From the NCBI RefSeq assembly GCF_037392515.1, contig NC_090281.1, positions 42,384,645 through 42,448,644 on the forward strand: a stretch of 64,000 nt of DNA. The letters run 5' to 3'. Source of the stretch: Haliotis asinina. Taxonomy: Eukaryota; Mollusca; Gastropoda; Lepetellida; Haliotidae. Below the pieces are notes generated by a model. The model was not told where the DNA came from, did not search any database, and worked only from the letters and a program-made list of their open reading frames with translations. Both the position numbers and the translations under genes were made by a program. Below are positions 1 to 30,000 of this stretch, piece by piece. Position 1 is the stretch's first letter. Each line of letters starts with the position of its first letter.

Positions 1-213
1 TCCTGGCATTTGTTATGAAACGTACAAGATAAATATTTTGTAAGTATGCAATTCTGAAACTGACTTACACATGTATTTCTTCTCCCTTTTAGTGCCTTCG
101 TTTGAGATTGTGAACACAAACTGGATGATATGTAACTTTGAACGTAAGAATGACACATTTGTAAATACAACAGTGAACTATGACATGTAACAAAAGATAC
201 AAGTGAAACTTAC

Positions 214-6200: not shown

Positions 6201-9125
6201 TTTTTCATGCCGCACTTAATGTGAAATGGCCCTAAAACATCGAGGTACAACGAACCCTAATAAACTTGCTGACAATGAGAGATTATCAGTGTCACAGTAT
6301 CACAGAATCCAATGCACATGTTTAATACATTCAAACACCAGTTTTTTGTCGATGATACGTGCTGTGCATTCGTAGTCATAATTGCCAACTTATGCAAATA
6401 TCTTTGTTCAATGGCTAATAAAAGAAGACTTGAAGAACGTATGCGTTTCGAAGCATGACATTTGGCTTAACGATAAGGAAAAATACATACCCATGGTGGT
6501 GTTTCTGCTGTAATCGCTCATCACTGGATAGCCGGTAGTAGCATATTGTGGATAGCCAGTTGTAGGGTAGTCAGTAGTAAAGTAGTTGGGATATGAAGTT
6601 GTTAAATAATCTGTATATTGGTAGTAGGGATAGCCGGTAGTAGCATATTGTGGATAGCCAGTTGTAGGGTAGTCAGTAGTAAAGTAGTTGGGATATGAAG
6701 TTGTTAAATAATCTGTATATTGGTAGTAGGGATAGCCGGTAGTAGCATATTGTGGATAGCCAGTTGTAGGGTAGTCAGTAGTAAAGTAGTTGGGATATGA
6801 AGTTGTTGAATAATCTGTATATTGGTAGTAGGGATAGCCGGTAGTAGCATATTGTGGATAGCCAGTTGTAGGGTAGTCAGTAGTAAAGTAGTTGGGATAT
6901 GAAGTTGTTAAATAATCTGTATATTGGTAGTAGGGATAGCCGGTAGTAGCATATTGTGGATAGCCAGTTGTAGGGTAGTCAGTAGTAAAGTAGTTGGGAT
7001 ATGAAGTTGTTAAATAATCTGTATATTGGTAGTAGGGATAGCCGGTAGTAGCATATTGTGGATAGCCGGTTGTGGAGTAGTCGACAGGGAAGTAGCTTGG
7101 AGTAGTAGACCCACTGTAACCTGTAAACAGATGGTCAGATGTTCTGTCATCCAGGTAACAATACATGAGATGTAAAGTGGATTACGGAATTGTATCAAAT
7201 AAAATCACTATCCATCGTCCAACTCGCCAACAAGTAACGGTTCCGCACGACTACTGGATTCCAGATGCGCCTCTTACACAGGACAGCAACCCTCATAATG
7301 ACTATAGGAGTGTTTCTTTGAGAACATTTCTTGTCATCTATTCTAGACGCACAGTCAAACGACCAATTCTGACGGTAGAGCATCGATGTCGAGATCTCCA
7401 CTGGAACACACAGTACTTGAACAGGGGAGCACATGAACAGAGAAGAGGTTTCTTCGCCCATGAGTCACGTTTCTTTCTTCATCCATCTAGCGCCAGGACT
7501 CTTGTCGACAGACGCACACGTGAGCGTTACATTCAGCCATGTAGGCAGAAGCGGATTGTTTTGGAGGCGGGGGTGTTATAATAGCTATAGCAAGGACACT
7601 AATGATGTTGGTTCAGATAAACGTGAATGATATGAGGAACCGAGACGACATTTTACCTTGGAATGTCCCACAATAGATTATTCTGCTCACCTTCGTATAT
7701 GCTATAGGATCCACTGACACCTTCTCCGGTTACAGAGCCGTCGCTGGTGAAGCACACTCGGAAGAGATCTCCTGTGACGGTGACTGTAATATATGAGTTG
7801 AAAATGCTAACATCATAGCGTTTAGAAGCTGTAACAACCAAACAACAAAACTTTGATCCACTGCATCAGAAAAAACATTGCGCCATCAAATTTCAGTTGT
7901 TCGCATTAACTGACTGGATCAGCTGAATCATGTTTCTTGGGGCGATGGGATACCATAATGGTTAGAGCGTTCGGTCGTCACGCCACAGACCTGGATTCGA
8001 CATGGGCACAACATGTGAAGCCCATTTCTGGTATCCCCCGCTGTGATATTGCTGGAATATTGCTGAAAGTGGCGTAAAACTAAACTGATTCATTCACGTT
8101 TTGATATTGATCATGTAAAGAATAAATGAAAATGGACAATGGATACCTATTTGCTTTATTTTTTTTGTGTGTGATACTTTCAACGTTAATTTGTAATAAG
8201 TAGCAAATACCAAGGACTTCCGGAATTATATCAGGTATTGTCAAGATCGTATTGGTGCTAAATAAATGACTTTCGTGTTTGGCTGTTTGTGGATTGTTAC
8301 CTCACGACATACAACTGTGCAGGGCAGGCCTTTTCAAGTACCTTGTTCGTTTAAGCATTGGATGTATATGCTTCAGGGTGAAATACACTCTGATGCACCT
8401 AAATATGGAATAACAAACCATTCAAAGCCAAGGTGGAACACTACTACAGAAATTGATCGATGAGCTCACAAAGACCATTACTGTTTGTCTACACACTACA
8501 TTTTCCATGCCTGCGTATATCATTACGTTTGCAAATATGAACTTCAATAAGCATACTACTCACATGTACTTGAGTAGAAGGACTTCCGTCCACACTCCTT
8601 CTCAGGTCCATTTTCCGTGTAGAAAGTAAGAGCATCATAACTACAAGTGGAACTACTTTCTAGGTCAAACGTGTCCAAGTTGAACGTAATTGTCCACGTG
8701 GTCCCTTGTACGTCAGGTGTGAATTCCCAGCAACAGTTCTCGTTGTTGCTGTACTGATCGCCAGTGTTGGTGGAAATTACCCCGAAAGTATCATATCTTG
8801 TTCCTCCATCACAACCTGCAGAAGGAACGTGACTCGACCTTACACACTAATAATGGACAACTATAGAAGATCCAGATGAACAAAATTTAACCAGTTCATC
8901 ATAAAACCTATGAGTTAATAATAAATTTACTAAATGGCGGTCCGTTTAAGCAGCTGTAATATAATGGCTTAGAGGACAATTTTAGGACTTCAGTGATACC
9001 GTCAAAATCAGCTCACCCGACTTTACATATTTATATTATATATATGTGAAGTCGGGTGCGCTGATTTTGACGGTAACACTACCACTGAAGTCCTAAAATT
9101 GTGTATGTATGTATATATGTATGTA

Positions 9126-9171
<46 letters not shown>

Positions 9172-9740
9172 GGACTTATATATATATATAGGACTTATAT
9201 ATATATATACACGAATTGGAATTTTGAAGACAGTCCTTGATTAAAATTTATGACTTACCGTTTGTTTGTCGCTTCTCTCGTGCTTGAGCGTTCTGTGGCA
9301 TAAGTGTATAAATTGATATACTCTATGATGAAAATTGGCACAAATAGCATAGAAAAAAACAACATCTAACAATGACGAATGTATGACTCATTAACACGGC
9401 ATAAACGTATTATGGATCACACGTTACGCCCCTTTTCAACTAAGATGCACGCAAATGCACATACATAAATGTATGTTAAAACTGAGCATTTTCCCAGGTG
9501 CCACGACCGTAGTCATTGACTTAGTAAATGAAAGGGCATAATACGAAACACACAAAACATATTTCAACGCATTACAGAAACCTTTAAGTTGACAATTTCA
9601 GATACCTTTGAATTTCACCATCATACCCTTGTAATAAAACAATTCTCAGTACATATACTCACGTTGAAAGCCCGTCCTTCGGTCTGAGCCAAAAGAAGGC
9701 TCACTACCAGAGTAAAGCAGATCATGCCTGGGACATTCAT
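214..9740 (-). CDS. Secreted multi-CUB protein with Tyr-rich repeats, copy A (partial, runs off left edge)
   Basis: Sixteen exons are readable on the minus strand: 9740-9663, 9292-9259, 8815-8564, 7783-7691, 7120-6491, 4927-4691, 4140-4048, 3894-3811, 3500-3441, 3205-3167, 2853-2605, 2323-2237, 1945-1718, 1285-1163, 844-815 and 465-214. All have AG/GT borders, and all are phase 1 from the second exon on. They total 2569 nt (856 codons). The start gives a signal peptide (MNVPGMICFTLVVSLLLAQ). CUB domains are recognised by the pattern YxNNxxC, then FDLExxxxCxYD, then CG, then F(T/S)SDGSVxxxG in the following exon. The order is CUB1, a 630-bp Tyr/Pro/Thr-repeat exon, CUB2, Thr/Asn-rich linkers with Asn-glycosylation sequons, CUB3, CUB4, a micro-exon and the first half of CUB5. 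Copy B is its tandem paralogue. The small leader exon carrying the first Cys of CUB2 is missing here, but the frame is kept. Function is unknown; a secreted matrix or mucus role is only a guess. Confidence 0.85.
5428..5665 (+). mobile_element. LINE 3' tail fragment in an intron of copy A
   Basis: Matches the 3' part of the LINE relic at 10880-12390: TAGCAAAGGTACT, then GTCCCTAGTGTGGTGATCTAC, then CTGTCNTTTGTYGACAG and TCTCGTCAC. It is inserted in the copy A intron between the Tyr-rich exon and CUB2. It has no coding part. Confidence 0.7.
6529..7075 (-). repeat. Coding minisatellite, 102-bp units, in the Tyr-rich exon of copy A
   Basis: About five and a third units of 102 bp (34 codons) lie inside one exon of copy A. 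Each unit encodes YPQYATTGYPYYQYTDY followed by (L/S)TTSYPNYFTTDYPTTG. About 10 of 34 residues are Tyr; the rest are mostly Thr, Pro, Asp, Gly and Gln, with no Cys. Units are nearly identical at the DNA level, a sign of recent unequal exchange or slippage. The equivalent exon in copy B has shorter units of different sequence. Confidence 0.9.
7200..7600 (+). pseudogene. Tc1/mariner transposase relic in an intron of copy A
   Basis: The plus-strand frame 7165-7581 carries the middle of a Tc1/mariner transposase: VEHRCRDLHWN, then HESRFFLHPSSARTLVDRRT, then RERYIQPC. In intact family members the second block reads T/DESRF with the first catalytic Asp; here that position is His (AHESRF). Neither the N-terminal HTH nor the later DDN and PIEHLWD blocks are present, so this is a short dead fragment. 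It lies between the second exon of CUB1 and the Tyr-rich exon. Confidence 0.65.
7945..8100 (+). mobile_element. tRNA-derived SINE
   Basis: A-box-like TGGTTAGAGCG and B-box-like TGGATTCGACA lie about 30 bp apart, followed by a non-tRNA body (CCCGCTGTGATATTGCTGG) and an end reading GTAAAACTAAACTGATTCATT. The body is one I recognise as very common in gastropod, especially abalone, DNA. It lies in the intron between the two CUB1 exons of copy A. Confidence 0.8.
8976..9102. repeat. Near-perfect 127-bp palindrome (foldback / MITE-like)
   Basis: The left arm begins ACAATTTTAGGACTTCAGTG and the right arm ends with its reverse complement. Arms of about 55-60 bp include GTCAAAATCAGC and CCCGACTT blocks and meet in a short AT-rich centre. 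It is not found in copy B at the matching intron, so it was inserted after the duplication or lost from B. Confidence 0.8.
9103..9210. repeat. Compound microsatellite (TGTA)n (TG)n (TA)n
   Basis: TATGTATGTA repeats run into about 18 TG dinucleotides, followed by two copies of AGGACTTATATATATATATA. It directly abuts the palindrome. Confidence 0.9.
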
Positions 9741-9773
9741 GCTGCATGTGCTGGATTATACGAAATGTGCCTG

Positions 9774-9781
9774 CTTTTATA
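9774..9781 (-). promoter_or_regulatory. TATA box of CUB gene copy A
   Basis: TATAAAAG lies on the minus strand about 34 bp upstream of the predicted ATG and is preceded by TGTG. The same block stands at the same distance in copy B, so it was kept after the duplication. With usual TATA spacing the transcript would start only about 5-12 nt before the ATG, so either the leader is very short or the second Met (codon 6) is used. Confidence 0.6.
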
Positions 9782-10879
9782 CACAGTCAAAGACTAAACA
9801 CCTGCTGACTACTACAACAAAAACATTTTATAAAAAGAATGCTTGTCAGTATAACATGACGGAACAGTTACACAAGATGGCACACTTGATGGAACATCTG
9901 CGCTCTGGCGATGTTTCACCTGTATTCTTGGAGCTTGGATATCCCAACTAATGGACAGGTGAGGTGAAACTAGGAATATTATTGTGTGTTACGTTTATCC
10001 AGCTGTTTGTTCGCACTGGCTGGCAGTATTTCGGACTTGTTTGGACTATCATTGACTACGCGAATTACATAATGACGTCATTAATCCAAGGGGTAATTCA
10101 GTGATACATGGCAAGTTTAAATGTTCATCGGTGATAGTATAGACATTTGACTGTTCTTCGGTAACATGTATTTGTGCGGACTAAACATTTTTTTAACACG
10201 GAACTCTCATAGTCACGATATGACTCAAATAATGGGAATGTGAACTCAATCACTCAAGTGAGAGAGAATGTGTGAGGTATACATAGAATTTTGTGATATA
10301 TGGAAATTATGAAAAATATGTCGACAAAGGACAATAAACGTCACTAGCATATCACGAAACAAACATTTAGAACATCATCTAACTCTAAACATAAGTGTCT
10401 AAACAGACCAATCCAATATATAAACGGGCAATATACAGTGAAATGATTAGATTTATATCCTTCCAATTGCAATTTTTATTGCTTATTGATCGGGTTATGC
10501 TATTTGAGCAAGTCTTCAAATAAATCCAAATATTTTTGTCGATTACTGCACATCTTGAAATTTTCTTGCTACTGAGAACTCACTGCATGCATACCTTTAC
10601 CCTTAGACCTATTAGACTGTAACTTATTTACTGGTTAATAAATGATAAATTCTCAATCTCCCCATTCTTTTCTTGTTACCAAACACAAGGAAAACACTAT
10701 TCATCTTGTAAACAGCCTGTAAAATGATAACATTTGTATAACTTCAATACAGCGTTTTTACGACTGATGAAGTCTCAAGTTCGATTGTTGCCTTGAAATG
10801 TGTCAAAGCAGCTGGTGTCCTGGTATCTTGCCCGAAATGTGAAAGTGTGGTAAAATATCTTACTTCCTTATCTCCTTAA
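9782..10879. other. Upstream spacer of copy A, no gene seen
   Basis: No coding signal. The first 300 bp align by eye with the region upstream of copy B (about 32690-33010), for example GACTACGCGAATTACAT in both, so the tandem duplication reaches past the promoter. The rest is AT-rich and unrecognised. Confidence 0.6.
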
Positions 10880-12390
10880 TGGTTTTAATAATATATTTAG
10901 AAGTGGTAATTTTCCAGATCCATGGTCCAGGAGTATATATCTTTCCACATTGCAAGAAAGGAAGTGTTCATAATATCAACAACTTTCGTGGTGTTTCACT
11001 TATTAGTGGCTAGATTTGTCCACAAGTTATAAATAACAGATCAAAATCCTTTGTAGATTTGTACAATAAGACAAATAACCCCAGTGTCAAGCTGGCTTTC
11101 AGAAGGGGTATTCTACAGTTGATAACATGTTTACTCTTCAGTCTCTAGTACAGATGTATTTATCTAAATCAAAAGGAAGGTTGTATTGTCTATATGTCGA
11201 TTTTCAAAAGGTTTTTGATTCCGTCAGCATGAAAGTTATACAGTGTGGTCTTTATTCAAATGTTAAAGATGGTAGGGGATCTTTGTTCATGAAAAATTAT
11301 TACAGTTCTTTATACTTCTCTAAGCCATGGATTTATGTATATTTACAGACTCTGTTCTCGAGTTACAAAAGAAAAAAAAGACGTGTTGTGTCAAATGGGG
11401 TTTAAGAGTCAAATTAGATAAGACTGAAATATTGGTTTCCCGGAATGGTGGCAAACTAAGGAAATATGAAAATGGAAACTGGCCGATGTCTAAATGAAAA
11501 AATCAACCTACTATTGTCATCTCGGTATCAATGTTTTTTCAAATAGATTGTGTTGGGTCACAGCTGTACAAACATTAGTCCAGAACGCTACTGAAGATGT
11601 GGTTTCCATCCATTAACTATGTGGCAAATTTCGTAATATTTCTCCAGAGACTATGTTTAAAATGTTTGATTCACAAATCAAACCAATAACTCTGTATGTT
11701 TCAGACATTTGGGGTGTCGACAAGCACTTGTGTCTTGAACGCTTTCAGGTTAAATTTTGTGAATTTGTAATGGGTGTTGGTTCCATATCTAACATCACAT
11801 TTAATTATTGTCTTTTTAAAGAAATTAATTTCATATATGACTTTTTATTATTATGTTCTGTTGGTAGATCTATTTGTATGATTGGTAGCTGAGATTAGTA
11901 ACTTGAATTGTTAGTGGCTGCACCCTCGAAGGGGTTGAAGTATGGTAAAATTATTGTCCTCCTGAGAGGGTACGTAAGTCCCGAAACGTTCAAAGTCAAT
12001 GTAAACTTACCAGGAATTTTTATGCGTAGTGTTTGTGGTATTTTAATTTTGGCTAAAATATCTTACAATCGCCAGCGGCTGAGGGGATGGTGTGAATCCA
12101 GCTAGGGCCCATGCATGTAGCAAAGGTACTCTAAGTCTCCATGGTCCCTAGTGTGGTGATCTACCGTCTGTTCTTGGCGATCTGTAGCCTGTTTTTTATA
12201 CTGTATTGTCCATATAGTGATGTCAGTTTTCACTTTCCACGCTAGTTTTAATGCTAATTGTGATATTCTAGTTGCTTTCCTGTCTTTTGTTGACAGGTTT
12301 TATAATATACATTGATAATATGCCTTTTCATTATTAAATGTTCTCGTCACGATACGGTTGAAATATTGCCGATGTGACGGTAAATGTAGC
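10880..12390 (+). mobile_element. Decayed LINE (RT fragment plus 3' tail)
   Basis: Broken frames show RT blocks of a CR1/Jockey-like LINE: NGSGNFPDPW, then QAGFQKGYSTVDNMFTLQSL, then YCLYVDFQKVFDSV around 11090-11230, and later GVDKHLCLERFQVKFCEFV (11710-11780). Several stops interrupt the frame and the YADD block is gone. The piece runs into a 3' tail of about 480 bp (GTTAGTGGCTGCACCCTCGA ... GTCACGATACGGTTGAAATA) that recurs alone at several other places in the window. This copy therefore ties those tails to their parent LINE. Confidence 0.75.
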
Positions 12391-14986
12391 TCACTCAGTC
12401 ACTGACTCAATATCTAACAAGGCTGATGTATTGGACGCATGTGGCCGTTATGGTATTTATGTAGATGCATATGTCAGATGTATAAGATACTGATTCAAAC
12501 TTCTTAATATGTCACAAAATAGGGACCCCAAAGAGGGTTATTGTATATCAGCAGGTTTAGATGCAGCTGTTAGGGAAACGTGGGTTACTAATACTAAGCA
12601 TCATTTGCATTGTTTGGTTAGATACCAACTTCAAAACATGTGCATGTCCTGCAGTCTCGTTGGCAGTAACATGTCGATAATGGAGATGAATCACCCATAT
12701 GTAGTGATCTCGGACGATATCAGGCTGAATTGAGGTTGGCTTGTACAGACAGATAGCTCTGCTAAACTTTGAATTGGTGAGCAAATGCAGACTGGAACTT
12801 TCCAGCTTCAGGGTGTCCTGTTGCAGGATGTCGATGTTGCAAATCACAGCACTAAGTTTTGATAAATCTTCCATAAAGTCGACAAAAGCATGCTTAACAA
12901 ATGGTGACTGACATTTGACCTTTTATTGTCACTGCACATGAGTGTCACAACATGAACGTGCGTTCTGGTTATACGTTCAAGTGATCAAAACAGTTTGTGT
13001 GAGTCTCGTGAAGCTGAACAAGTATTATGTTTGAAATTGTTACATTTATGCACTTCACATATATTTAATGAACAATATTGTATTTGCATTAAATAATTCC
13101 TGATTAAACTTCCACCTTGTTCAGTATGTAGTATGCGTTTCCTTTGTCATGCATTTGCATCTTTTGAATGCAAGGTTATTTATTAAGAATTGTTTCATTA
13201 TTTAGTGTTTTCTTTAAGATGAACATTGTATTTCATCACGCTTAGTGTTGGAATCGAGCAGAAACATTTTTATAACAAAACCTTTTCCACACCCTTAAGA
13301 AATATCTGTCAAAAGCAGAGACGAGTGTATGATTCCGTCTGCTTCACGAACTAATATATAAACGCTTACCCATAATGCCATTTGGGAATGTTCTCATCTC
13401 AAGAAAATCCATGTAACGTATCTAATGCATACATTTATTTGCTTTATTTCTCCACTGGACACAAGGGCTAGTAGACCCAACTTTGAATCAAACATCTTCA
13501 GTATTTACTAGTTTAGCTGGATGTTCGATCATAATTAATTCCTGAGACTGACGGAACAATCTAATTACTCCCGAGTTCATTTTTCACAGTAGCAGGAAAT
13601 CGGTATTTCAATATTCCTTTCTACAAAACCAATGCACATCATGTTAAAGCTTTATTAAAAATACAATTGCTAAATACAGTTTGGAATACGATCGAAGTTA
13701 TAGTGTTTTTTTTTGTAAATTCAGTGTGTTAAGTAGCTACTTAACTGTTCAGTATCCCCGAAACTGAGAAATGATAAAGAACAATTATCGTCCTTTCTTC
13801 AGCACACAAACTTACTGATGGTGGATATTTTATGGGCAAGAAAGATTGCCCAGCCTTTATAACACGAAGCTGTGCAAATGGTCCTTGGAGTAGATTAGAA
13901 CATTCATACCAAAACAGGGTCTCATTAGAATGTGAGGAATTTCGGGTCAAACATGCCGAAAAGACAATATTCAATGAATTTTGATCGATTGTTTATGTCT
14001 TTATTACTGATGGAAGGGGTGATATGTAAATGGTTTTAATATGGAATATATCAGCTTCTGCAATTTATCCCTTATTGTGGAAAGTGGAGTGTTTTGGGGT
14101 TTTTTTATATTTGGCAAGATAAAATCAAATTCAGCGAATACACAAGTCTTTAGCAAACCTACCAGTTGTGATAATGTGACAGTGTGTTTACAAGAGACAC
14201 AGGTCATGGAGACATTTCAAGATATAACCTGTGATGTCAGACCAGCCTCATGAAGAGTACTGAGTACTGACTGACTGAACAGAAACGTTGACGTCGCTGG
14301 CGCTTAGCAAGCCATTGACAGTGATATCTTGCTTCTGTAAGGAGAAATCTATTAATATGCTTTGTGGTGGAACACTGACATCATCCTGCATAACGAGGGA
14401 ACTATCCAATCACTGTGTAATGGGATTAGTTGGATTGTACGTTACTCACCAGCCTGCTAGTGTGATGTGTAGGCGCCAAGACGAATGTTTGGGTCTTTAA
14501 TATGACTGGTAATGTATGTATATATACTCATCGAAATAGGTTAGAGATATTGGTATTTTTATGGTTGATATTTCATCATTGTTTCTATGAATAGATAGAT
14601 CATCATTCATAATTTCCACAGCATATTTACTGTGTTAACTATGTAACATATACGTTATTTAAGATGAATGAGCTTACTCTATGTGTGTTTGAGAGCTGTA
14701 TAGGAAAGACAAGATATAATTGGACAGCGAAATGTACCTACCCATGTCAGCACAACTGACAACAGGGTCAGAAGATATGAAAGACACAAGTAATATTATT
14801 TACCATCTGTCCATGGTGTGACCGACGTGTGGTGTTTTCAGCTTCTTTACTCATGATTTTGACATAGTCAAATTACTGGTTACCACAAACCATTCGAACA
14901 TGAAATTGTCTTCTTTGACATACGCCTGTGTGTCTGAAATAATATGACAACTTCTGTACGTCATGTGAAATACATTTTACTACTTT
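12391..14986. other. Intergenic, no gene recognised
   Basis: AT-rich sequence. The 13060-13600 part resembles 33500-33900 upstream of copy B by eye, which extends the tandem duplication. Short open frames (for example minus 12557-12874) show no family motif or splice context. Confidence 0.5.
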
Positions 14987-15115
14987 GTGCTACAACATAT
15001 TAAATGGTGATTCACAACGACATGTTACATTGTGTTGTGCTACAACATGTTAAATGGTGATTCACAACGACATCTTACATTGTGTTGTGCTACAACATGG
15101 TTCACAATGACATTC
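14987..15115. repeat. Tandem repeat, 50-bp unit
   Basis: About two and a half copies of a 50-bp unit beginning GTGCTACAACAT and containing GGTGATTCACAACGACAT. Copies start near 14987, 15037 and 15087. Confidence 0.85.
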
Positions 15116-17211: not shown

Positions 17212-17760
17212 CTATATTTTTAAAATTTGGAGAGATGAGTAAAATCTGAAATTTTGATCCTGTTGTTGCTTTCTGTCTGTGTACAGTAGTTGCCTTTTCA
17301 TGTTGATCGACTTCACGATAACCTTGTTGAAATCTGTTTGACATGGTGTGAATTCGACATTATCAATATCATGCTTTACCATTACTAACCAAGCAAGATT
17401 ATCTGCTTTCTCATTACCCTGAAAGTATAGCAGGAGTATTCTCAGCTCTAAATATGGCCCCAAAACAGATTTTAAACTGACATCATACTTAATCCTTACT
17501 TTCTTGATGTTAATGGTCATTTTAATTAAAAAGAGATGAGCATGTAACAGTTTCTGGCCCCACGTGTTTCAAGCAACACTTTTGCCTTCCTTGGGATTTC
17601 GCAGGTACAAATTACCTGTATACTTTTAAGACAGTACTCACTCTTACCTACCAATCGAAACAGCGAGTATAAAACCAACCTAACTGTCAAATGTGATGAC
17701 GTCCATGACTCTACGTCCAATGGATTCCATTTGTAAGAAAGTTATTACAGGAAAATTGGC
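17212..17760 (-). mobile_element. LINE relic with RNase H-like end
   Basis: The minus-strand frame contains FQGNEKADNLAWL followed by VEFTPCQTDFNKVI. This matches the GHxGIxGNExADxLAK block near the C-terminus of RNase H domains in I/Jockey-type LINEs. The preceding frame (17720-17526) has VTVRLVLYSLFRL-like text of the same domain type. No full domain, no RT and no intact frame are present. It lies downstream of the stop of CUB copy B. Confidence 0.5.
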
Positions 17761-18053
17761 TAGCACTCCAAAGAAAGACCAGGCATTTCTTTTCATTGAG
17801 AGATGTCTTCATGTCCTTTACAACTAACGGTGGTTATGGTTTCTGGGAGGTAAGAGCTCAGTTATTACCTTTTTCCATAATCTCGTTACTTTAATGGTTA
17901 GGAATAATGTCGTGTAAATTAAGAATGCACCAACCATGGGTAAGGGTTTAAAGGCTGGTGTAGGTTTATGGATATTAGACCCCTGATGATACATCGAATA
18001 CGATTAATGGGAAACATATTTATACTATCTAAAATTGGTGATTACTCACCTAC

Positions 18054-21000
18054 CTAGTATTGAATGTCTTCAGGGAGGAAGACGTATTCTGTCTTGAAAC
18101 CGTCTCTTGTCACAGATCCATCGCTTGTGAAGATGAATTGGAAATGACCATCAGTACCTGCAAAAACAGAAATACCGACATTTTGTGTCCAGTAAAGGAA
18201 GGCGAAAAACTGGTCTTAACATATCAACGTTATGGGTAATACATGCGTGCTACTCACTGTAAATCCTCTCTCCGATGTTTGTTCCACACAGCCTCTCTCC
18301 TCCTATCTCAAGAGCGTCGTATTGGCAATCCCTGCCACTCTCAACATCAAACAGTGGGAAGTTGAAGACAAGTTCTCCAGGACCAGGGGTGTTGATGGTG
18401 TAGGTGCAGTTCATGTTGTTGTCGTAATCACCAGGCTGTGACTCAAAAGTACCGGAAGTGCCGTTGACAGTTGCATTGCAGTAGACTGAAACAGGTGTGA
18501 TTTATCGCGTAATTAAGTGATTATTATAAATAGGGAATATGGTTTTATATGGTTGCATTGCAAAAGACTGAAGAAAGTGCGATTTGGAAAAGTGATGCAA
18601 TGACTATTTAAGCCTAACAAGAGTTTAGTTTTATAAATAACAGAAAAAGGAAATACATAAATGTAGACACGAAACGGATATAATTCAGACAGGAAACTGA
18701 GATATCAAACGTATAAAATTTACATTACATGAAGTTACGTACCCAATTGAGTGACATAATTAAAGGAGAACCCGCTACGCACAACGGTTCCGTCACTGGT
18801 AAATGTCATGTTAACTGATTGCCCATTGTCTGCAACACAGTAAAACATAGTCTCCAATTTCACTCTTGTGAATACGTCACTCTCCACAGATGCCCTCTGT
18901 GAGCATCAAATAATCAAAGAAGCATTACTTTATGTAGCATAACTGAGGATACGTACATTAATACAAGGATAACCGTATAGTCGGTCGAATTTTGATTTGA
19001 AATACCGATTAACTACGGCTAATTACTCAGCATTGTGAGACTATCTTACATTCTCGGGTAAAGGACTCTCTTGTTCCACACAGTTGCTCAAGGGTGTCGC
19101 CACTTGTCACTGTCAAACTGTCATAGTGGCAGTCCGGTTCGTCCTCGAGGTCAAAACGGGTAAAGTTAACTGTGGTAATGTGAGCGGAAGGAGGAAAGCG
19201 GAGAGAAATGTCACAGTGCTCGTTGTTTTTGTATCGTCCCTCGGAATCAGTGGGCAGGGTATAGGTGCCCTCAAGATCATCACTATCGAAGTTGCAATCT
19301 GGAATGTCACAGGAAACGACGAGAAAATAAGGTTCTTCATTTGATACTTGAACTTGAACTTGATACACAAACATTTATCCCCATCTCTGTCCCCCGTGAG
19401 ACGTATTTGTAATGCAAAACCTCACCATAAGTATAAATACTCTATTCCTTTTTGTAAACCCAAATACAACATATATTACATCTTCACTTATTCGTGGCCA
19501 CGTTACGATAGAATGTTACTGACACAAAGCTCCACATCAACTTGTGATCTCTTAAGGTTGTACGTATTGTCATACAGCCTTTGTGACACTGGTGACATGG
19601 TAAGGTCTTCACGTGTGCCTTACTGTAAGCAAATATGAACGACTTTCTTATTTTATGAGACAATACAAAGACAATGTTTCATATCAAAAGGTGATTAAAT
19701 GGCAGCTGTGGCAGTCTGTACAAACAGATAAAACAAGGGTTGTTTACTGTTTCTATGAAAATCTGTGGTATGTTGTTTCAGTGACTTAGACCTATGGAAT
19801 ACTTACGCTCCTCAATACTGAACAAAGCCACAAAACCCCTTCCTGTAACACTGCCGTCACTTCTAAAGCGGATTATGGCTGATCCACCTTGTACTGACAC
19901 TGAAGGAAAGCCAAAAATAATATCAGAGCTGCAAGAATATATGAAACTGTCGTAAAGGAAATGCAGACGACTATTTTCGTAATCCATGTTTCCATTGTGT
20001 GTCCTTTTGCTATCATTACATCTATAGGTACTTTTGATTTCACGATCTCAAACGTCACTTTTTACCATATAATACGCTTACGTCTTGTTGCGTTGGGCAA
20101 ATCACTTCCACAGTATTTGTCATCTCCAACCTGGACGTAGTCATAGCGACAGTTGCTTGAGGACTCTGTGTCGAGGGCGGTGAAGTTGATGTTCAGATAG
20201 AAGGGGGTGTTGCGAGTAAACACATACGAGCAGTCCATGTTGTTGGGGTAGTTGCTGCCGGTACCAGGGAGACTTTGGATAACGCCCTCCGAGATGTTGG
20301 TGTTGATATATGAACATTCGCCATTACTCAAGGAAGGAACACCTCCTGTTTGGCAGAAATAATGGAACACTACACTCAAAGTCGTTACTATAAAAACATT
20401 TTATCAAGAAGCCAACTGAATCAACAAAAATGCACCACCTGTTCACCTAGCAGATTTGGTTTTAATGTCACAGAATGGTATGATGCATAATTAATGCCAG
20501 TACACGTGGGTTTAACTTACTTGGCTGGAGGGTGTAGGTGGCGTTGTATCCCAATCCTGTCCTACTGGAGTCAGAAGAAAACGTCACTGTGGTGTTACCT
20601 CCGTCTGACGTGTCTAAAATTAAGCACATTACTGTTTTAAACCTAACTAAGAATACAATCATTAGCTAAAACATGTGTTACTTACACCTCTCATATATGC
20701 TAAACTTGTGTTAATCGCTCTTTGAGCGCTTGACACATCTCTCTTCCTTTTCATGAAAATTTATAAGAAGCTATCAAGGAAGAAATTTATGAACGCCACA
20801 TGTGTGTCGGTAGTTTCAGTACAGCCTCTCGTTATGAATGTAACAGCTTATTGTGGAAATCTTGTGACATGCTTTAATCATATATGAACACACCAACCCA
20901 CCTCAACTGACAAGTTGCTAAGTGACATTCCTGGTATTTGTTATGAAACGTACAAGATCAATATTTTGTAAGTATGCAATTCTGAAACTGACTTACACAT

Positions 21001-24000
21001 GTATGGCTTCTCCCTTTTAGTGCTTTCGTTTGAAATTGTGACCATAAACTGGATGATATGTAACTTGAAACGTAAGAATGAGACATTTGTAAATACAACA
21101 GTGAACTATGACATGTAACAAAAGATACAAGTGAAACTTACACTCCACTGTTGTGTCACTCCAGGTTGATCCACATCCTTTCTGACTGTTGCCCCGGCCC
21201 ATATCAACCTCCAGATAATCGTATCTACAGTTAGTTGAGGACTCCAGGTCAAACGTTGTGAAGTTGACGACCAAGATGTATGGTAAACTGGGACCTGTGA
21301 TAACAGTGACACATCGCTCGTTGTTGGCGTAGCTGCCGTTGCCGGGGCTTGTCAGGATGCCATTTTCTGATGTCAGGACTTGGTTGCAGGTTTCTGTCAT
21401 TAAGAGACGGGAGACAGAATTTGTTACTCCAGTGGGCGTGCGCTGGGTTAAACGCTGTTTTGAACAGTATTCCAATTATACCAGGACGTGTCTGGATTAT
21501 CATTTGCTACGAGTACTTGATAGTACATACTGCTTTTGAGACACTTTGTACAGACACAGAAGAACAGATATCAGGAGAATCATTATCGGTGACTATTTGT
21601 GGACAGAGTAAGATCCTGTGTTTCATGGATTCAGTGACGCTTTAGTATATATGAAATGCCTGGCTATCATACAGGAAGACTGACTGCTATTTAACGCTGC
21701 ACACAGCAACATTCAGCTATTTTTCGACTGTATGGTTTACTTAGACTCACCAGGCTCAGTGGTAGGGGGAATGGTTGTCACTGAAAAGTAATGTCAAACA
21801 TGCACTTTTGCAGGTATGAAACAAATATCATATTACATTATTATTTGGAAGTCTTAGCTAGATGTGAAATCAAATTCAGTAATGACATAGAGGACTGAGA
21901 AAGCAGCTTAGTATGTGAATAAGTCTTTGGTTTCTGTCTAAATATTTGAAGAAATCTCATATAATGTTGACTCGAAGCCATGGTGTGCACATTACTGATT
22001 CATTAGAGGGCTCAAAATCTGTTACTCCAGTCGGTGTGCGCTGGGTTAAAAGCTGTTTTGAACAGTATTCCAATTATATCAGGACGTGTCTGGGTTATCA
22101 TTTGCTTCGAGCACTTGATAGTACATACTGTGTGACACTTTGTGCAGACACAGAAGAACATCAGGAGAATCATTATTGGTGACTATTTGTGGACAGCGTA
22201 AGATCCTGTGTTTCATGGGGAGTGAGTAAGTGAATTTGGTTGCACGCCGCACTCATCAATATTACAGCTATATGGCGGCGGTCTGTAAATAATCGAGTCC
22301 GGATCAGATAATCCAGTGATCAACAACATGAGCATCGATCTGCGCAATTGGGAACCGATGACATGTATGAACCAAGTCAGCGAGCCTGACCACCCGATCC
22401 CGTTAGTCGCCTCTTACGACAAGCATAGTCGCCTTTCATGGCAAGCTTAGGCTGCTGAAGGCCTATTCTACCCCGGTACTTCACGGAACTGTGTTTCATG
22501 GATTCAGTGGCGCTTTAGTATATATGAAATGCATGGCTATCATACAGGAAGACCCAATGCTATTTAACGCTGCACTCAGCAATATTCAGCTGTATTTCAA
22601 CTGTAAGGTTTACTTAGACTCACCAGGCTCAGTCGTAGGGAGAATGGTTGTCACTGGAAAGTAATGTCAAACATGCACTTTTGCAGGTATGAAACAAATA
22701 TCATATCAGATTACTATTTGGACGTCTTAGCTAGATGTGACATCAAATTCAGTAATGACAAAGGGGATTGAGAAAACAGCTTAGTATGTGAATAACATGT
22801 TGATTCGAAGCCATGGTGTGCACATTACTGATTCATTAGAGGGCTCAAAACCCTTATTGGAACGTTGCAGATACAACATCACCCCAAACCCACGTGAACA
22901 CTTTGGTGATTCCTTATACAAAGAAGAACTTGGAATCCCGTTCCGATTAGTGCCAGGAAATACAACACTCGCCACTCTCAGATTCAGTACCTGGTAGTGT
23001 TGCTGGTGGAGATGTAGTTACATTGGTCTGAGTGAAGTTGAAGTTTATGCGGAAACCTTCACCCGTTACAGAACCGTCACTTGTGAAGACGAACTGGAAA
23101 TGCCCATCAGTACCTGTGGACACATACTTATATCTTATTTACACAATAAAGGAGATCGATATTTTAAAGATAAAAAAACAAAAAAATAATCTGTTCTTTT
23201 CCGAGAGACTAATAACCAATATCCATGTATCATAATTTCGACCTCGAGGAACACCAGCGAGCACACGTGACCCTGTGAATACCTGTCTAAAGAGATACTG
23301 ATGTGTCACAGGTGCTCCTAGAGATTTGAGACACACATACGTTACTTAATTTGAAAGGTCTTCAAAAACAAAGGTGTTACTGCGACATGTTATGTTGTTC
23401 CCTGAAATATCAAATCTTAGATCTAGATGGACATTTGTGGTACATAAGGTGTATTCTTCAGAGCACGTGTCACCTGAAAGGCGGGACATGTCTTGTTTCC
23501 TATATTGCACGGTGTGTGTGTTGTGCATCTTTGTGTCCTACTCACTGTATGTCCTGCCTTCAACGTTTGTTCCACACAACCTGTCTCCCTCCATCACGAC
23601 AGCGTCGTATCGGCAGCTGCTGGCTGTCTCAACGTCAAACGATGGGAAACTGAAGACAAGTTCCCCAGGACCAGGGGTGTTGATGGTGTAGGTGCAGTAC
23701 ATGTTGTTTTCGTAGCCACCGGGTAGTGACTCAAAGGTTCCGGATGGAGCGTTGATTGTGGCATTGCAGTATACTGAAACCGGAGAAAATGATGCATTGC
23801 TTCATCGACTTTTGTGAAAAGTAAGTGCGCCTGATTAAACTCAGCAGGAGATTATAGGAAAAACAATGACTATGTTTGTGTTTTAAGTTGATTTGTTTGA
23901 TTGTGTTTTAACTTGATTCGTTTGATTGTGTAAGTATATGTTGCAGGAAGAAATTCTAACCGCATCTTCTCTTATACATGTCATTGTTAAACCGATACAA

Positions 24001-27000
24001 TGCCCCTGAAAAGACACACATATTGCACATGTAAATATCTGATACTGGATACAAACATACGTACCAATTTCAGTGACATAATCAAAGGAGAAACCGCTTC
24101 GTACAACACTTCCGTCACTGCTAAATGTCATATCAACTGACTGTCCGGTGTCTGTAAAACAGTAAAATGTATGAGAAACATGTCACTGTCATTGTGTCTC
24201 TGAATGCGAAGGATAATCCACATGTATTCTTCAGTTTGATAAGTGTATACATGGTCGCTACCTAAGACGTGTCGATGCATTTATAATTACTGGATTATCT
24301 CCCAAACTAGCACCTTCTCGCGCCTTTTAGACTATGGCCTTGTACTACCAGAAAACATTAGCACGGGTTTTGCTGGAGTTCATAACCATGAAAGCTTTTT
24401 GTTTACAGCATATTTTAAAATGTGGAGCAAGACTTACATTGTCGGACAAAGGACTCTTTTGGTCCGCACAGTTTCTCGGTGCCCTCATCGCTTGTTATCG
24501 TTAAACTGTCATAGTCGCAGCCCGAATCATCCTCGAGGTCAAAACGGGTAAAGTTGACAGTGGTGATGTGAGGGGTGGGGGGAGAGCGGATAGTGATATC
24601 ACATCGTTGGTTGTTTTCGTATTGTCCCTCGGAATCTGTGGCCAGGGTGTAGCTGCCCTCAAGATCATCAATGTCACGGTTGCAGTCTGGAATTTCGGAA
24701 CACCAACAATTACTAACTCATGCATCTGAAACTCTTCCGGTTTTATTTAAATGTTAAAATGATTAATGGCATTTAAACGTAATTATAAATGGATCTATTA
24801 GTTGACAAACAATGAAAGCTGTTATAAACATGAATCATGTTGTCCTATTTGAACATGAATCTACTCTATGCGGCTTTTCCACTCTTGACTGTTTACTTAA
24901 TTATTGCTTTTCAATAACTATTGACTTCGCAAGTACATTATTGCTCATTCACCTTGTTCTATCTGAAGAATATCTGAAGAATATGATTTAACCCCAGCAA
25001 GTTGTACTCACCGTCACCGGTGTCGTCTGTAGCGTTCATAGTTGTGTTCACTGTCCAGAACACAGAGGCATATTTAACGTTCAATTTAATAGGAATGATT
25101 GGTGAATTTTAAATTATTTAATGCAATGATGACATGGAAGAGAACTAGAATTACTTCACGTCATATAGTGACAGTTTTACACAAGAACTATTGATGGCTG
25201 TGATTGGCAGATGCTTTAAGCTTCAGGTTATTAGATAGGATTCAGTTACATAGCACACTTGGAATACCTGGTAGAGTTGTGGCTTGTGTGGTATTAGGTG
25301 ACATCGTTGTGTTGAAGATAGGGTCCACTGAATGCAGATAATACCATTACACATGAAGTAACAACAAAAGTGTAGTCTCGGTATGGATGGATGTAGTCTG
25401 TATCTACGTTATTGTCAGCCTCATGTCTCATGCTATCCGTGTAGTGTCTGGGCTACACAGACACCATGCTGCTTCCAAAGTGAAACACCATCGAGTGGTG
25501 TCATACACATGATAGAAAAGGGACATGTGTTCATCACAGCTTAATGTTTGAATTCAAGGAAACAGTTTTACACTAGAAGTACAATGAGTTAGTTCACTAT
25601 AAGACAGAAACGTGCACTACCTGGTAGCGTGGTATTTTCTGTAATGTTGTATAAGTCGGTTGTGTTGAAGATGTCCACTGGAAAGGGTGTTATCACATCT
25701 GAGTCAACCTCTTGAACTGCAAGACGTGACAAATAAGAGAACGTACGTTATTGTCATCTTAATGCTAATGGCCGTAGATGTGCAATGGGTGTTTCCTCGG
25801 AACCATGTTCCGAATCTAGCTTCCTGGTTATTTATACGCTTGTAACCGAATATTCACCCTCCTTTGGTGCAGCTAGTCAGGTATTTACCTGGATTCATGG
25901 CATATGTTGCCTGGAAACCCCGCTTGGTGACTGATCCGTCAGAGTGGAAGCAGACATTGAAACGTCCGTCGTGGAACTCAACTAGAGGTACGAAAGCAAA
26001 ATACAATGTGTTCAAAGTAATATGCATCATGAAGAACTGTTTATAAAATCTCATAGTATAACTGTTCTATTCACATAACTGTAAAAGTTATATTTTCTTG
26101 ACACCATTAGAAATATATTTCTGTAGATATTCTCTTGCACTGGCGTTCTTAATTATGTCTTGGATTGATTGTGAACTGCCTAAGCTCTAGATCAATGTCT
26201 AGATGATAACATACGCCTGCAAAGTCGTTTTGAACTTCTCAACAATTAACATTGTAATATTATGCACCGCCAACAATTTCCTGAACTCTCTTAATTTTTG
26301 TATAATCACGCATAAATTGGAACTACACGTGCTTCAGTTTGCATGGAATGTTATTTGCTTAACAACATATCCGACCAGTCTGTCATGGTAAGACTTCGTC
26401 TGGACACTCCTCATACATGTATTCCCATCTCAATGTACCGTTGAGTTACATATAGAGATACGGATATATGGATTTTACCAAAAATCTCTATCCTGTTTCC
26501 CAATGCTCTAAGCCTGTGGTATATCACGCATGAAACGCTAACACAGGTCTCCTTTGAGGAATGAGAGAGTGGGTTTACATTTAAATTCAAATCAGCAGTA
26601 TTTCAGCTATATCGTGATTAAAACTAGTCCTAATTTAGGAATACATATAAGACAAAAATGATGTCAGCGAAGAACTGTAAACTTACTAGATTATCACAAA
26701 ATGATGTAAAACTAGCTACCATATGTCTGTAAAGGTAGAAAACTATTGTTGGACAATGCAATGTAAATATAGTGTATTTATCGCCAACACGTGAAGGTAG
26801 TTTATAATACTGGGGTCCATAGAGACTTACATTACTTTTGCTACTTGTATGAACCCTAGATGGGTTTACACCAACATTTCAGTCGTTGGCGGATATGCTG
26901 AGATTTAGCCATACATTAAAATAACAAAATGTCAGGTATTGTCGATCTATAGCCCATTTTTATAATGTCTTGTCCACAATTCAAATATCATTTTGGAGAT

Positions 27001-30000
27001 TGACGCTAGTTTTACTTCTACATTACTGTGATATTCTATATAGTTGGTTTCTCTGTCCTTCGTTGACATGTTTTTAATATCTACATGTCTTGCTGGTGAC
27101 TTTACAACTTGTTTAAGTCACGATATGGCTGAAATATATCCGATGTGACTCACTCACTCACTAAAATGACAAAATTACTACGATAAAAAACCTGGTTGAC
27201 TTACATTTACACCAGATGTTTTCGGACTTTCGTACCCTGGCTGGAGGGCAATAATTTTACGATATTTTAACCCCCTTTGAGGGTACAGCCACTAACAATT
27301 TGGGTTATAAATTTAAACTTCAACCAGAACAAAATCAGTCGTCAACTCACACTCTCTCTGGGTACCCTCAGCAACAGTGCCACATTCCCTCAGTCTGGTA
27401 TTGCCGTCATCAAACTCGATATAGTCAAATATACAGTCGGTGGCCTCTTCAATGTCAAACACGTTCATGACAAAGGTGATGATGCCCGAACCCGTGAAGC
27501 TTGGATGAAGTGAAAAGCAAGCGTCCTGATTATTGTTGTAGCTGCCGTCATCGTTGATGCTGATGCTGCCATGGTTTCCATAGTAAGTAGTGTTGCCTGA
27601 ACAAGATACATATATACTAAGTTAACATTTCGTCACATATATTAACGGTTTGAAAGTCGAACCAAAAACAAGTATGATTTAGAAACAAAACTTGAAATGC
27701 AAATTTCTTACTCTTTGAGGAAAAGAACACACATGTTATTAAAGCTAATTGATCATGCCCTGGCTACTAGCAGATCCATACCCATTATTCGTTATCATTA
27801 ACACAAGAAAAACGTGCTGGTTTACTGCTAGCAACAAAACATCATGATTATCATGGCTTAATCTACCATCAGGGGTTACGTTGATAGTGTCACATCTGGG
27901 TATGTCCTCAGGGAGGGGAAACACTGAAACCAACAAGAGAAAACATTAGCTCCTGAAGTTTCACTAGCCATTACAGCGAAACGGACATAGTTGTAAAGAG
28001 TCAGTGAGTAAATGCGTGAAAGTAATATATTCCATAAGGGCTTCTTTGCTGAGCAGAAGAATATATAAAATCATACCCAATACAAAATCAAAACTTGCAT
28101 GTCGTTTTTAGGTTAAACAAGGCCAGTAATTGCGCTATTGTGAGGCTCCATTTCTGGTTAGTGATTGCCTGGTCTGTTAACATGCTTCTGGTGCAGGGCA
28201 GGAGTGCTGCTGGATGACGTCAGGAAACAGTCATACTCGTACTGGAGTCGTTTTCTGTGTAAGTGGAGGACGCTACCCGTATGTCAGGACATGCGCACTC
28301 AATTTACATGACTACACTCACAATAATGTATTTCGTTGATGAATCGAGCCTGATGTTATCTGGTGTTGGCGTGTCATGACAGGTGTAACAAGAGAAACTG
28401 ATTTCTTCGGTACAACAATACATTTTTTGTCTCCAAGTCCTAATAACAAACATGAATAAACATATGTGTTTTGAAGCACGATGATAACACTTGATGATAA
28501 GGAAAATACATACCACCGATGGTCCCTGGATAGTCAGTTGTGGCATAGTAGGGATATGGATAATAGTCGGGATAGCCTGTTGTAAGTTGGGGATAGTCTA
28601 TAGGGACGTAGTAGGGGTATAGGGTAGTCACATAATCTGGATATTGGTAATAGTCGGGATAGCTTGTTGTAAACTGGGGATAGTCTGTAGGGACGTAGTA
28701 GGGGTATGGGTTAGTCACATAATCTGGATATTGGTAATAGTCGGGATAGCTTGTTGTAAATTGGGGATAGTCTGTAGGGACGTAGTAGGGGTATGGGGTA
28801 GTCACATAATCTGGATATTGGTAATAATCGGGATAGCCTGTTGTAAATTGGGGATAGTCTGTAGGGACGTAGTAGGGGTATGGAGTAGTTGCATAATCTG
28901 GATAGTCAGTGGTCAAGGAGCTTGTGGTAGTAGGGTCGATGTTATCTGTAAAAGAAGATGACCTGTGTTATTATTTCTGTTAGAACTTAGCACTTGTTAA
29001 ATCAAATCCTGCAAAGGTAGTAATGAGTGAATTACTATGAAAATAGTGAGTGGATAACTGATGTTTTAACAGTACCTAAGTACAAAATATCTTCCTTCTG
29101 TCAATATAGGCTGCAGTACAAGTAGAATGCCCTATTGTTTTACTGAACAGATGCATGACCTTCTACCATCCAGCTTAGTGAACGTCCATACTGAGCCCAG
29201 AAAATCCGTTTAAGAATTGGTCTTCGGAAACCAATTTGTTTCGTAACTTACGGGATCGGATGGTCAGGTTCACTGCTTGGTTGACACTTGTCAGTGCATA
29301 GACCGGTGCTCATGATGTCAATCACTGGATTGACTGGTGAAGACTCGATTACTTACGGACATTCGCCATGTAGCTGAGATACTGCTAAGCTGCGTTCAGC
29401 AACAAACAGTTATAATTTAACACTGATAAACTATTGAAGCAGTGTCAACACTGCAACAACGCACATCTCTATGGGAAGGAGAATCTGGTAGAACCCTCCA
29501 ACCGGAAGTCGTCAACGAGTGCATGCCTAAGGGGTTGATTCATAAGTGGGATCGGGTTCAACTCTTTGGAAGACGATAACATCAGCACCACCCTAATGTA
29601 ACAATTTGTGCGTCAAACAGAAGTATGGAGTATGCATCTGCGTGAATGTCAAAAGGACTGGGGTCAATGTTTCTCACTCTCCTGGACGGAGAGATCGCCC
29701 TTTGTCACAAAATGCCCCCGAATCCATTATGCTGTTCGTTTGAAAGTGGCAAAACGCAACGAGAATCTTGTTCCACTGCTTTTGTTTGAAACTGCTATTT
29801 CTACATGTCTGTTGAGCACGATGGAATTGGATGAGGAAAGATCCGTTTTGATGTCGTCCACCTCAGCATGCAATGAATTAGAGTGTCGCCAGTTGAAATA
29901 GGGTGGGCGTGAGTGGAGAAGATGGTCGCGAATCCCTTCCGGACACGTGTCATACAGGTGAGTATTACACCAGGCCATGTGTTCTTAAAGTTTGTTATAA

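What the first reader, a model, noticed from the sequence alone, without database searches (positions are those of the whole stretch)
6491..28945. Tyr-rich repeat exon homogenised independently in the two paralogues
The orthologous exon has 34-residue units in copy A and 28-residue units in copy B, each array nearly uniform inside, while the flanking CUB exons stay alike. Concerted evolution within each copy has overtaken divergence between copies. A Cys-free spacer in which about a third of residues are Tyr suggests a structural or cross-linkable role, as in other Tyr-rich extracellular proteins.
Basis: partly seen in the sequence, partly recalled or inferred. Interest (0 to 1): 0.7.

Follow-up and report, generated by a model that had tools for sequence, protein, structure and literature searches.

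The report
Tyrosine-rich repeat exon, separately homogenised
A secreted snail-family protein carries a tyrosine-rich repeated spacer that has been rewritten separately in neighbouring gene copies, while some nearby exons are being copied between those genes; the process is known from silk and egg-coat genes, and what this protein does is not known.

Summary
Exons at 6491-7120 and 28514-28945 (minus strand, phase 1-1) encode Cys-free arrays with 27-28% Tyr, not a third. Units are 34 aa in A and 29 aa in B, not 28. Units differ by 0-1 of 102 bp in A, 3-6 of 87 bp in B, 24-30% between A and B. A third paralogue, C, 82 kb beyond B, has four diverged composite units of the same plan (21-33% apart) and a 48-bp sub-array of its own (91%). 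So each gene amplified its own version of an ancestral unit. The A-B unit comparison shows purifying selection (dS 1.3, dN 0.15). Two inverted relatives carry NTTFVPG sequon arrays in their spacer. The gene encodes a secreted protein with eight CUB-type domains, in a gastropod with egg-lysin genes. An extended acidic spacer is likelier than a DOPA adhesive; function is inferred.

The parts
6491..7120 (-). Gene A, Tyr-rich repeat exon (630 nt, 210 aa, 34-aa unit x 5.5), phase 1-1
   Evidence: AG/GT borders, 27.1% Tyr, 25.2% Thr, no Cys
28514..28945 (-). Gene B, Tyr-rich repeat exon (432 nt, 144 aa, 29-aa unit x about 4), phase 1-1
9663..9740 (-). Gene A, signal-peptide exon; TATAAAAG about 40 bp upstream of the ATG
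   Evidence: near-identical in A, B and C
9259..9292 (-). Gene A, small exon with RxKR (REKR) furin-type site
   Evidence: REKR in B, RQKR in C, RFKR in E, none seen in D
8564..8815 (-). Gene A, CUB1 first exon (CUB1a), overlapped by an A-B conversion tract (206 identical positions at 8882-8677)
7691..7783 (-). Gene A, CUB1 second exon (CUB1b)
4691..4927 (-). Gene A, CUB2 first exon (as spliced, lacks the first Cys of canonical CUB)
4048..4140 (-). Gene A, CUB2 second exon
3173..3894 (-). Gene A, three small linker exons (3894-3811, 3500-3441, 3205-3173) with NFT/NTT sequons between CUB2 and CUB3
2237..2853 (-). Gene A, CUB3 exons (2853-2605, 2323-2237)
   Evidence: CUB3a A-B dS 0.00
1163..1945 (-). 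Gene A, CUB4 exons (1945-1718, 1285-1163)
215..466 (-). Gene A, CUB5 first exon (aligned core); the gene continues off the window to a stop after CUB8
32571..32648 (-). Gene B, signal-peptide exon
31679..31712 (-). Gene B, RxKR exon
31164..31415 (-). Gene B, CUB1 first exon
30479..30571 (-). Gene B, CUB1 second exon
27351..27596 (-). Gene B, CUB2 first exon
18066..27350 (-). Gene B, stretch holding the remaining exons CUB2b to CUB8b and introns (stop codon a few codons below 18066)
   Evidence: only exon cores aligned, borders not delimited

Best explanation
Shown by sequence: A and B are tandem genes for secreted proteins with eight CUB-type domains. Between CUB1 and CUB2 a symmetric (phase 1-1) exon encodes a Cys-free, acidic, Tyr/Thr/Pro-rich spacer built from an octapeptide of the form YPxYxTT(D/S/G/P). 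Composite units of it occur in A, B and C, so they probably predate the split. In A (very recently) and in B (earlier) one version of the composite unit spread through the exon. C has four diverged composite units, plus a 16-residue unit amplified at its 5' end. The A-B and C unit comparisons show purifying selection on the peptide. CUB exons of the same genes are homogenised in patches between paralogues by gene conversion. Inferred: spread within the array was by unequal exchange or slippage. The spacer is extended, probably O-glycosylated and perhaps Tyr-modified; it sets the distance between CUB1 and the other CUBs and adds weak multivalent contacts in a secreted matrix, mucus or egg-coat layer. 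Its exact sequence and length can turn over as long as the Tyr-Pro / Thr-Thr grammar persists.
For: Units: A 0-1 of 102 bp, B 3-6 of 87 bp apart; A-B 24-30%; C composite units 21-33% (6 of 6 pairs); unit tree with a B clade (0.995) and an A clade (0.816), C units not one clade. No synonymous difference in the A unit pair scored (A2-A3, 0 of 23.2 sites); every A difference traces to one codon-position-2 change in A3. Peptide constraint: A1-B1 dS 1.30, dN 0.15; six C pairs dS 0.60-1.70, dN 0.17-0.35. Gene conversion: A-B dS 0.02 in CUB1a against 0.51, 0.30 and 0.28 in CUB1b, CUB2a and CUB2b; 206 identical positions at 8882-8677, about 67 of them intron, in a stretch 75% identical overall, 0 of 2000 shuffles; Fisher p=1.1e-4 for CUB1a against CUB1b+CUB2. 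Secretion: signal peptide, RxKR, stop codon right after CUB8b in A, B and C, no TM segment in the exon model. Disorder: AF2 model of the A exon, mean pLDDT 40.9, weak evidence. pI 4.05, 39-42% Thr+Ser+Pro.
Against: No expression, proteomic, population or sister-species data. The A clade has modest support (0.816), units are short, and unit dS rests on about 18 synonymous sites. C is not simply an unhomogenised array: its 5' part is a 48-bp array of 4.2 copies at 91%. Two of the three B pairs have dN above dS (0.08 v 0.06, 0.06 v 0.05), so constraint is not visible inside B. B could be read as simple recent growth. The shuffle test ignores exon constraint. Glycosylation and spacer function are inferred from composition. 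Tyr is held at 27% in A, B and C, which a plain spacer would not need. The crude hydrophobicity scan flagged three open frames in and beyond gene A, none in the exon model. CUB5-8 were aligned but not scanned with Pfam, and the CUB5 second exon was not delimited.
Confidence: 0.62

Rival explanations
1. Cross-linking or adhesive role: Tyr residues of the spacer are hydroxylated to DOPA or oxidised to dityrosine and cross-link a secreted glue, mucus or sheath.
For: 27-28% Tyr in A, B and C, with constraint in the A-B and C unit comparisons; secreted protein.
Against: No Lys, no Cys, at most one Arg, pI 4.05, opposite to Lys-rich DOPA adhesives (recalled). The D/E relatives fill their spacer with an almost Tyr-free sequon array.
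Confidence: 0.2
2. Gamete-recognition or egg-coat protein whose repeat turns over as in abalone VERL.
For: The genome has molluscan haemocyanin units (16 matches) and egg-lysin family exons (6 matches, two with stops inside), so it is probably a gastropod of the kind in which VERL repeats show concerted evolution (PMC9265791, passages). CUB domains occur in sea urchin EBR1 (same passages).
Against: No ZP match in the gene A pieces scanned (CUB1-4 and the Tyr exon) nor in the C Tyr exon; the rest was not scanned. Pooled dN/dS is 0.10-0.63 in three exon groups and three gene pairs, so no sign of positive selection there. No expression data.
Confidence: 0.15
3. Simple recent growth: each array expanded from one or two units after gene duplication, with no homogenisation of an older array.
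For: A units are almost identical; arrays can grow by slippage; C has locally amplified a 16-residue unit.
Against: C carries four diverged composite units of the same plan, and array ends are shared between paralogues (TTTSxLTT(D/G)YPDY in B and C; YP(V/A)M(S/T)DY in A and C; by inspection), so an array with these ends probably existed before the split.
Confidence: 0.25
4. Assembly artefact or collapsed haplotypes.
For: Nearly identical units are hard to assemble, so unit number in A could be wrong.
Against: A, B and C lie at separate places on one 102-Mb contig with A-B dS 0.20 over CUB1-2; exons keep frame and splice sites.
Confidence: 0.04

Closest known systems
Aciniform spidroin AcSp1 of Argiope spiders (PMC3933166; abstract and the section on repeat homogeneity read)
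   Same: Intragenic concerted evolution: 98.7% mean unit identity within the gene, same codon at the same place across units, repeats grouping by species, less uniform end units, several loci per genome, purifying selection.
   Different: A silk with Gly/Ala/Ser-rich 612-bp units that make up most of the gene; here a small exon in a multi-CUB protein, and the comparison is between paralogues of one genome.
Abalone VERL egg-coat repeats (PMC9265791, passages)
   Same: Gastropod secreted protein; repeats 3-22 homogenised by concerted evolution while repeats 1-2 are under positive selection.
   Different: VERL repeats are folded 153-aa ZP-N-like domains; here an octapeptide-based, probably unfolded spacer between CUB domains.
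DMBT1 / salivary agglutinin (PMC4851238, abstract start and passages)
   Same: Secreted glycoprotein with CUB domains and repeated parts that vary in number.
   Different: SRCR repeats with SID domains and a ZP domain; no Tyr-rich array is mentioned in what I saw.
CUB proteins with solved structures: procollagen C-endopeptidase enhancer 1, cubilin
   Same: CUB domain by sequence (E 3e-11 and 1e-8 for the signal peptide + CUB1 query).
   Different: No match of the A Tyr exon in the PDB up to E 1.

Membership tests
CUB domain (Pfam PF00431) | Profile match above the curated cut-off (21.4 bits) | tested here: met
   Four of four spliced A domains scanned (CUB1-4): 39.1, 44.6, 54.1, 55.1 bits (the CUB2 query carried residues later placed upstream of the acceptor). 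E second CUB 47.8, D CUB1 39.6. CUB5-8 were not scanned.
CUB domain (Pfam PF00431) | Four canonical Cys | tested here: inconclusive
   CUB1 has them plus two extra; CUB2 as spliced lacks the first Cys and has one extra in its second exon; position of the canonical Cys is recalled
Intragenic concerted evolution of tandem repeats | Units more alike within an array than between homologous arrays, silent sites included | tested here: met
   A 0-1 of 102, B 3-6 of 87, A-B 24-30%. In C not met for the four composite units (21-33% apart); its 5' 48-bp sub-array is 91% uniform
Intragenic concerted evolution of tandem repeats | Array ends escape homogenisation and stay shared between copies | tested here: inconclusive
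   Shared terminal peptides B/C (5') and A/C (3'), by inspection output only, no statistic; A's 5' end and B's 3' end differ from these
Intragenic concerted evolution of tandem repeats | Unit variation among alleles or species | not testable with these tools
   Only one genome is held
Interlocus gene conversion | Tract of near-identity including silent and intron sites inside diverged paralogues | tested here: met
   206 identical positions at 8882-8677 (about 67 in the intron), 0 of 2000 shuffles; CUB1a 1.0 of 49.8 synonymous sites against 23 of 84.5
Mussel-type DOPA adhesive protein (recalled) | Lys-rich, basic Tyr repeats | tested here: not met
   No Lys, pI 4.05
Mussel-type DOPA adhesive protein (recalled) | Tyr hydroxylated to DOPA | not testable with these tools
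   Needs mass spectrometry
Grass antifreeze beta-roll (PF21300), for the D/E arrays | Specific profile match | tested here: not met
   Above the 30-bit cut-off (E 64.4, D 32.4 bits), but two order-scrambled control peptides scored 37.6 and 48.1 bits against 31.1 for the regular motif at equal length: period and composition artefact

The most novel reading that the evidence does not exclude
In one gene cluster the spacer behind the first CUB domain has switched chemistry: a Tyr-based octapeptide array in three paralogues and an N-glycan-sequon heptapeptide array (NTTFVPG) in two inverted relatives, both constrained at the peptide level and both with a Thr-Thr plus Pro beat every 7-8 residues. 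The spacer would be a slot in which Tyr-based and glycan-based cohesion are interchangeable, refreshed by DNA turnover within the exon while conversion between genes keeps CUB parts matched.
Probability: 0.3. Interest if true: 0.62.

Novelty: new variant of a known kind. Interest (0 to 1): 0.42.

Why it matters
Within one locus several states of a protein repeat can be read side by side: a freshly homogenised array (A), an older one (B), an exon with diverged composite units beside a locally amplified short unit (C), and arrays kept uniform in peptide but not in DNA (D, E). The same genes show inter-paralogue conversion of folded-domain exons near intra-exon turnover of a spacer, so the two kinds of concerted evolution can be compared in one chromosomal setting. 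If the spacer chemistry really switched, it gives a natural test of what such linkers are selected for.

Tried and rejected
Rejected: (1) Antifreeze beta-roll for the NTTFVPG arrays, because scrambled controls score higher. The AF2 model of the E array is low confidence (mean pLDDT 58.2, single sequence) and was not used. (2) B as a pseudogene because of an in-frame stop upstream of CUB2a: the shared acceptor lies 3' of it in A, B and C. (3) The genome-wide hit on C1: satellite-like repeat peptides, not a relative. (4) D/E arrays as strict positional orthologues of the Tyr exon: in the stretches held, D/E have one CUB of the CUB1/CUB2 clade and then a CUB3/7-type domain, with no separate CUB2. 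Their spacer could equally match the NTT linker exons between CUB2 and CUB3 of A-C, and the branching of CUB2 with the D/E CUB1 has support 47 only. (5) A weak Pfam match of the C Tyr exon (DUF3432, E 0.0098, 16.6 bits against a cut-off of 26.7), below the cut-off. (6) Naming the species through chromosome sizes in print: no paper; the two papers (a sponge and equids) do not fit. COX1 search: no hit in the assembly.

Literature: searches returned no paper; some searches returned 2, 4, 4, 27 (20 listed) and 1. None of the listed titles and abstract starts describes a Tyr-rich repeat between CUB domains. This is a statement about these searches in an open-licence library, not about all print. 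Of PMC5120217 I saw the abstract and outline only.

Limits: intron identities come from a fast alignment, used after the first attempt was killed for memory. In one search the C CUB3b assignment (which had picked CUB7b) was corrected and CUB2a was trimmed to start near the true exon border. CUB5 is not in the CUB tree, and the second D CUB is there with its first exon only.
Full report
WHAT WAS CHECKED. The window lies on contig C2 of a 1.14-Gb genome. Tandem Repeats Finder gives a 102-bp array at 6526-7082 (5.5 copies, 98%) and an 87-bp array at 28552-28904 (4.1 copies, 94%). Both sit in open frames on the minus strand. Splice borders are clear: A 7120..6491 and B 28945..28514, AG before and GT after, phase 1 at both ends. 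The unit of B is 29 residues, not 28. Tyr is 27.1% (A) and 27.8% (B), and Cys is zero.

THE GENE. In A the 13 internal exons that I delimited, from the RxKR exon to CUB4b, have AG/GT borders and end in phase 1; the 5 B exons delimited behave alike (anchors chosen by eye). The order is: signal-peptide exon with a TATAAAAG box just upstream; a small exon with RxKR; CUB1 (two exons); Tyr exon; CUB2 (two exons); three linker exons with NFT/NTT sequons; CUB3; CUB4; and so on to CUB8, followed within a few codons by a stop in A, B and C. Pfam recognises CUB in the four A domains scanned; CUB5-8 rest on alignment only, and the CUB5 second exon was not delimited. A crude scan flagged three hydrophobic open frames on the gene strand in and beyond gene A; none is part of the exon model, so I read the product as secreted.

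MORE COPIES. I fetched 100 kb on each side of the window. In six-frame translations of these 264 kb, Tyr-rich stretches (11 or more Tyr in 40 aa) occur in A, B, a further paralogue C (C2:42495303-42496025, minus strand) and one low-complexity place. Whole-genome searches with the A and B repeats returned A, B, C and one stretch on C1 that is satellite-like; only the best candidates were scored. Two more genes, D and E, inverted and further along C2, share the end of the signal-peptide exon and a CUB1-like domain. E keeps RFKR; no such site was seen in D.

HOMOGENISATION WITHIN ARRAYS. The 10 pairs of the 5 full A units differ by 0 or 1 of 102 bp; the 3 B pairs by 3, 5 and 6 of 87 bp. Between A and B units 24-30% of aligned bases differ, and the four composite C units differ by 21-33% (6 of 6 pairs). 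C is not wholly diverged: its 5' part is a 48-bp (16-residue) array of 4.2 copies at 91%. The unit tree has a B clade (0.995) and an A clade (0.816), and the C units do not form one clade. The composite plan, a Tyr-rich hinge followed by YPxYxTTx modules, occurs in all three genes, so it probably predates their split; each gene then amplified a different unit (34, 29 and, in part, 16 residues). Some array ends are shared between paralogues: the 5' end between B and C, the 3' end between A and C (by inspection, no statistic). This is what is expected if the interior of an older array was overwritten. The A-B synonymous difference in units (11 of 17.8 sites) exceeds that of CUB1b+CUB2 (23 of 84.5), Fisher p=0.011; B against C1 also exceeds its flank (p=0.019), while A against C3 does not (p=0.79). 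A and B may therefore have amplified different members of the old array. These are small counts and three chosen contrasts.

SELECTION. Between A1 and B1 dS is 1.30 and dN 0.15; among the six C unit pairs dS is 0.60-1.70 and dN 0.17-0.35. Within B there is no such excess: two of three pairs have dN above dS (dS 0.05-0.12, dN 0.01-0.08), as expected if the copies are young, but it is not support either.

EXCHANGE BETWEEN GENES. The CUB exons are a mosaic. A-B dS is 0.02 in CUB1a, 0.51 in CUB1b, 0.30 in CUB2a and 0.28 in CUB2b; A-C dS of CUB1a is 0.54. CUB3a has A-B dS 0.00, but A-C there is only 0.14, so it says less. Over 2,147 aligned positions upstream of the Tyr exon A and B are 75% identical, yet 206 consecutive positions (8882-8677, about 67 of them in the intron) are identical; 0 of 2000 column shuffles reach this (shuffling ignores exon constraint, which is why the synonymous test, Fisher p=1.1e-4, is given as well). 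A second run of 104 positions covers the signal-peptide exon, where C is alike too. A-B identity is 0.89-1.00 in windows below 3.0 kb, patchy (0.74-0.99) from 3.0 to 3.7 kb, and mostly 0.52-0.83 outside the CUB1a and CUB2a exons from there to 9.6 kb (rough). Near 1.0 kb B and C are 99% identical while A and B are 89-92%, so C takes part as well. The likeness of CUB exons is thus partly recent copying, not only constraint.

THE RELATIVES D AND E. Their spacer is of NTTFVPG type: 19 pattern-matched units in D (NTTFAPG 11, NTTFVPG 5, others 3) and 29 in E (27 NTTFVPG). Silent differences are frequent (pS 0.36 and 0.29) and replacements rare (pN 0.05 and 0.02), so their peptide uniformity is kept by selection, unlike A, where the DNA itself is uniform. 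D also has a short exon with TTTYPSYYATT, like the A-C octapeptide. But in the stretches held D and E have no separate CUB2, and the tree joins CUB1, CUB2 and the D/E CUB1 (96) without resolving them (47). Homology of their array to the Tyr exon is therefore open; it may match the CUB2-CUB3 sequon linker instead.

ORGANISM. Molluscan haemocyanin units occur 16 times in two groups of 8 on C2, and egg-lysin family exons occur on C14 (6 matches, two with stops inside). That such haemocyanins and egg lysins point to abalones, top snails and their kin is recalled. It is probably a vetigastropod; the species was not identified.

FUNCTION. Best-supported reading: an extended acidic spacer (pI 4.05, 39-42% Thr+Ser+Pro; AF2 mean pLDDT 40.9 with three sequences, some low-confidence strands) between CUB1 and the rest of a secreted protein. 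Glycosylation and Tyr modification are inferred. A DOPA-type adhesive is less likely on composition (no Lys) but not excluded. An egg-coat role is possible in this clade and untested.

KNOWN OR NEW. Intragenic homogenisation with purifying selection is described for spider aciniform silk (PMC3933166, abstract and one section read), and concerted evolution of repeats for abalone VERL (PMC9265791, passages). The process is therefore known. What I did not find in the searches listed under Tried and rejected is a Tyr-rich octapeptide spacer between CUB domains, its different states side by side in one cluster, or sequon repeats in its place in relatives.

Noticed in passing
L030 2978-3237 (continuing into L047) and L031 2339-2989 (genes D and E): NTTFVPG-type 21-bp arrays behind the first CUB domain, peptide conserved while silent sites vary.
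   Followed up: yes
L011 7114-7317 (gene C Tyr exon, 5' part): 48-bp sub-array, 4.2 copies, 91%: a third unit length amplified inside the same exon family.
   Followed up: partly
window 56240-57963: 51-bp array (33.5 copies, higher-order period 360 bp). Plus-strand frames read MSTPQHPPMHGAPPPAY-like units but are short and broken; one minus-strand frame is open for 537 aa.
   Followed up: partly
window 35190-37631 (-): 813-aa open frame with a reverse-transcriptase match just below the Pfam cut-off (26.6 against 29.6 bits). The look of a Penelope-like element is recalled, not tested.
   Followed up: partly
window 48071-51085 (+): 1004-aa open frame that reads like a LINE reverse transcriptase; not searched.
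   Followed up: no
window 21616-22017 and 22489-22850: Internal duplication in gene B, about 0.85 kb apart, 92.5% and 98% identical pieces; C seems to have a similar duplication.
   Followed up: no
window 1-1400 and C2:42488200-42490000: DNA around CUB4b-CUB5, exons and non-coding, is 89-100% identical among A, B and C, more than introns elsewhere in A-C; B-C reach 99%.
   Followed up: partly
window 4691-4927 and 8564-8815: CUB2 as spliced lacks the first canonical Cys, and the second exons of CUB1 and CUB2 carry an extra Cys, suggesting changed disulfide pairing.
   Followed up: no
G000 C2:96255865-96318095 and C14:26671878-26918244: Two groups of 8 haemocyanin units and a cluster of egg-lysin family exons.
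   Followed up: partly
L031 3090-3237: 35-bp minisatellite just behind the E array (4.2 copies to the end of the locus, 92%).
   Followed up: no
L049 1-1200 (C1:630001-631200): Two satellite-like repeat peptides, one STVSYIPV and one of SILHPS type, in a stretch reported as part of a 3681-aa open frame near the contig end.
   Followed up: partly
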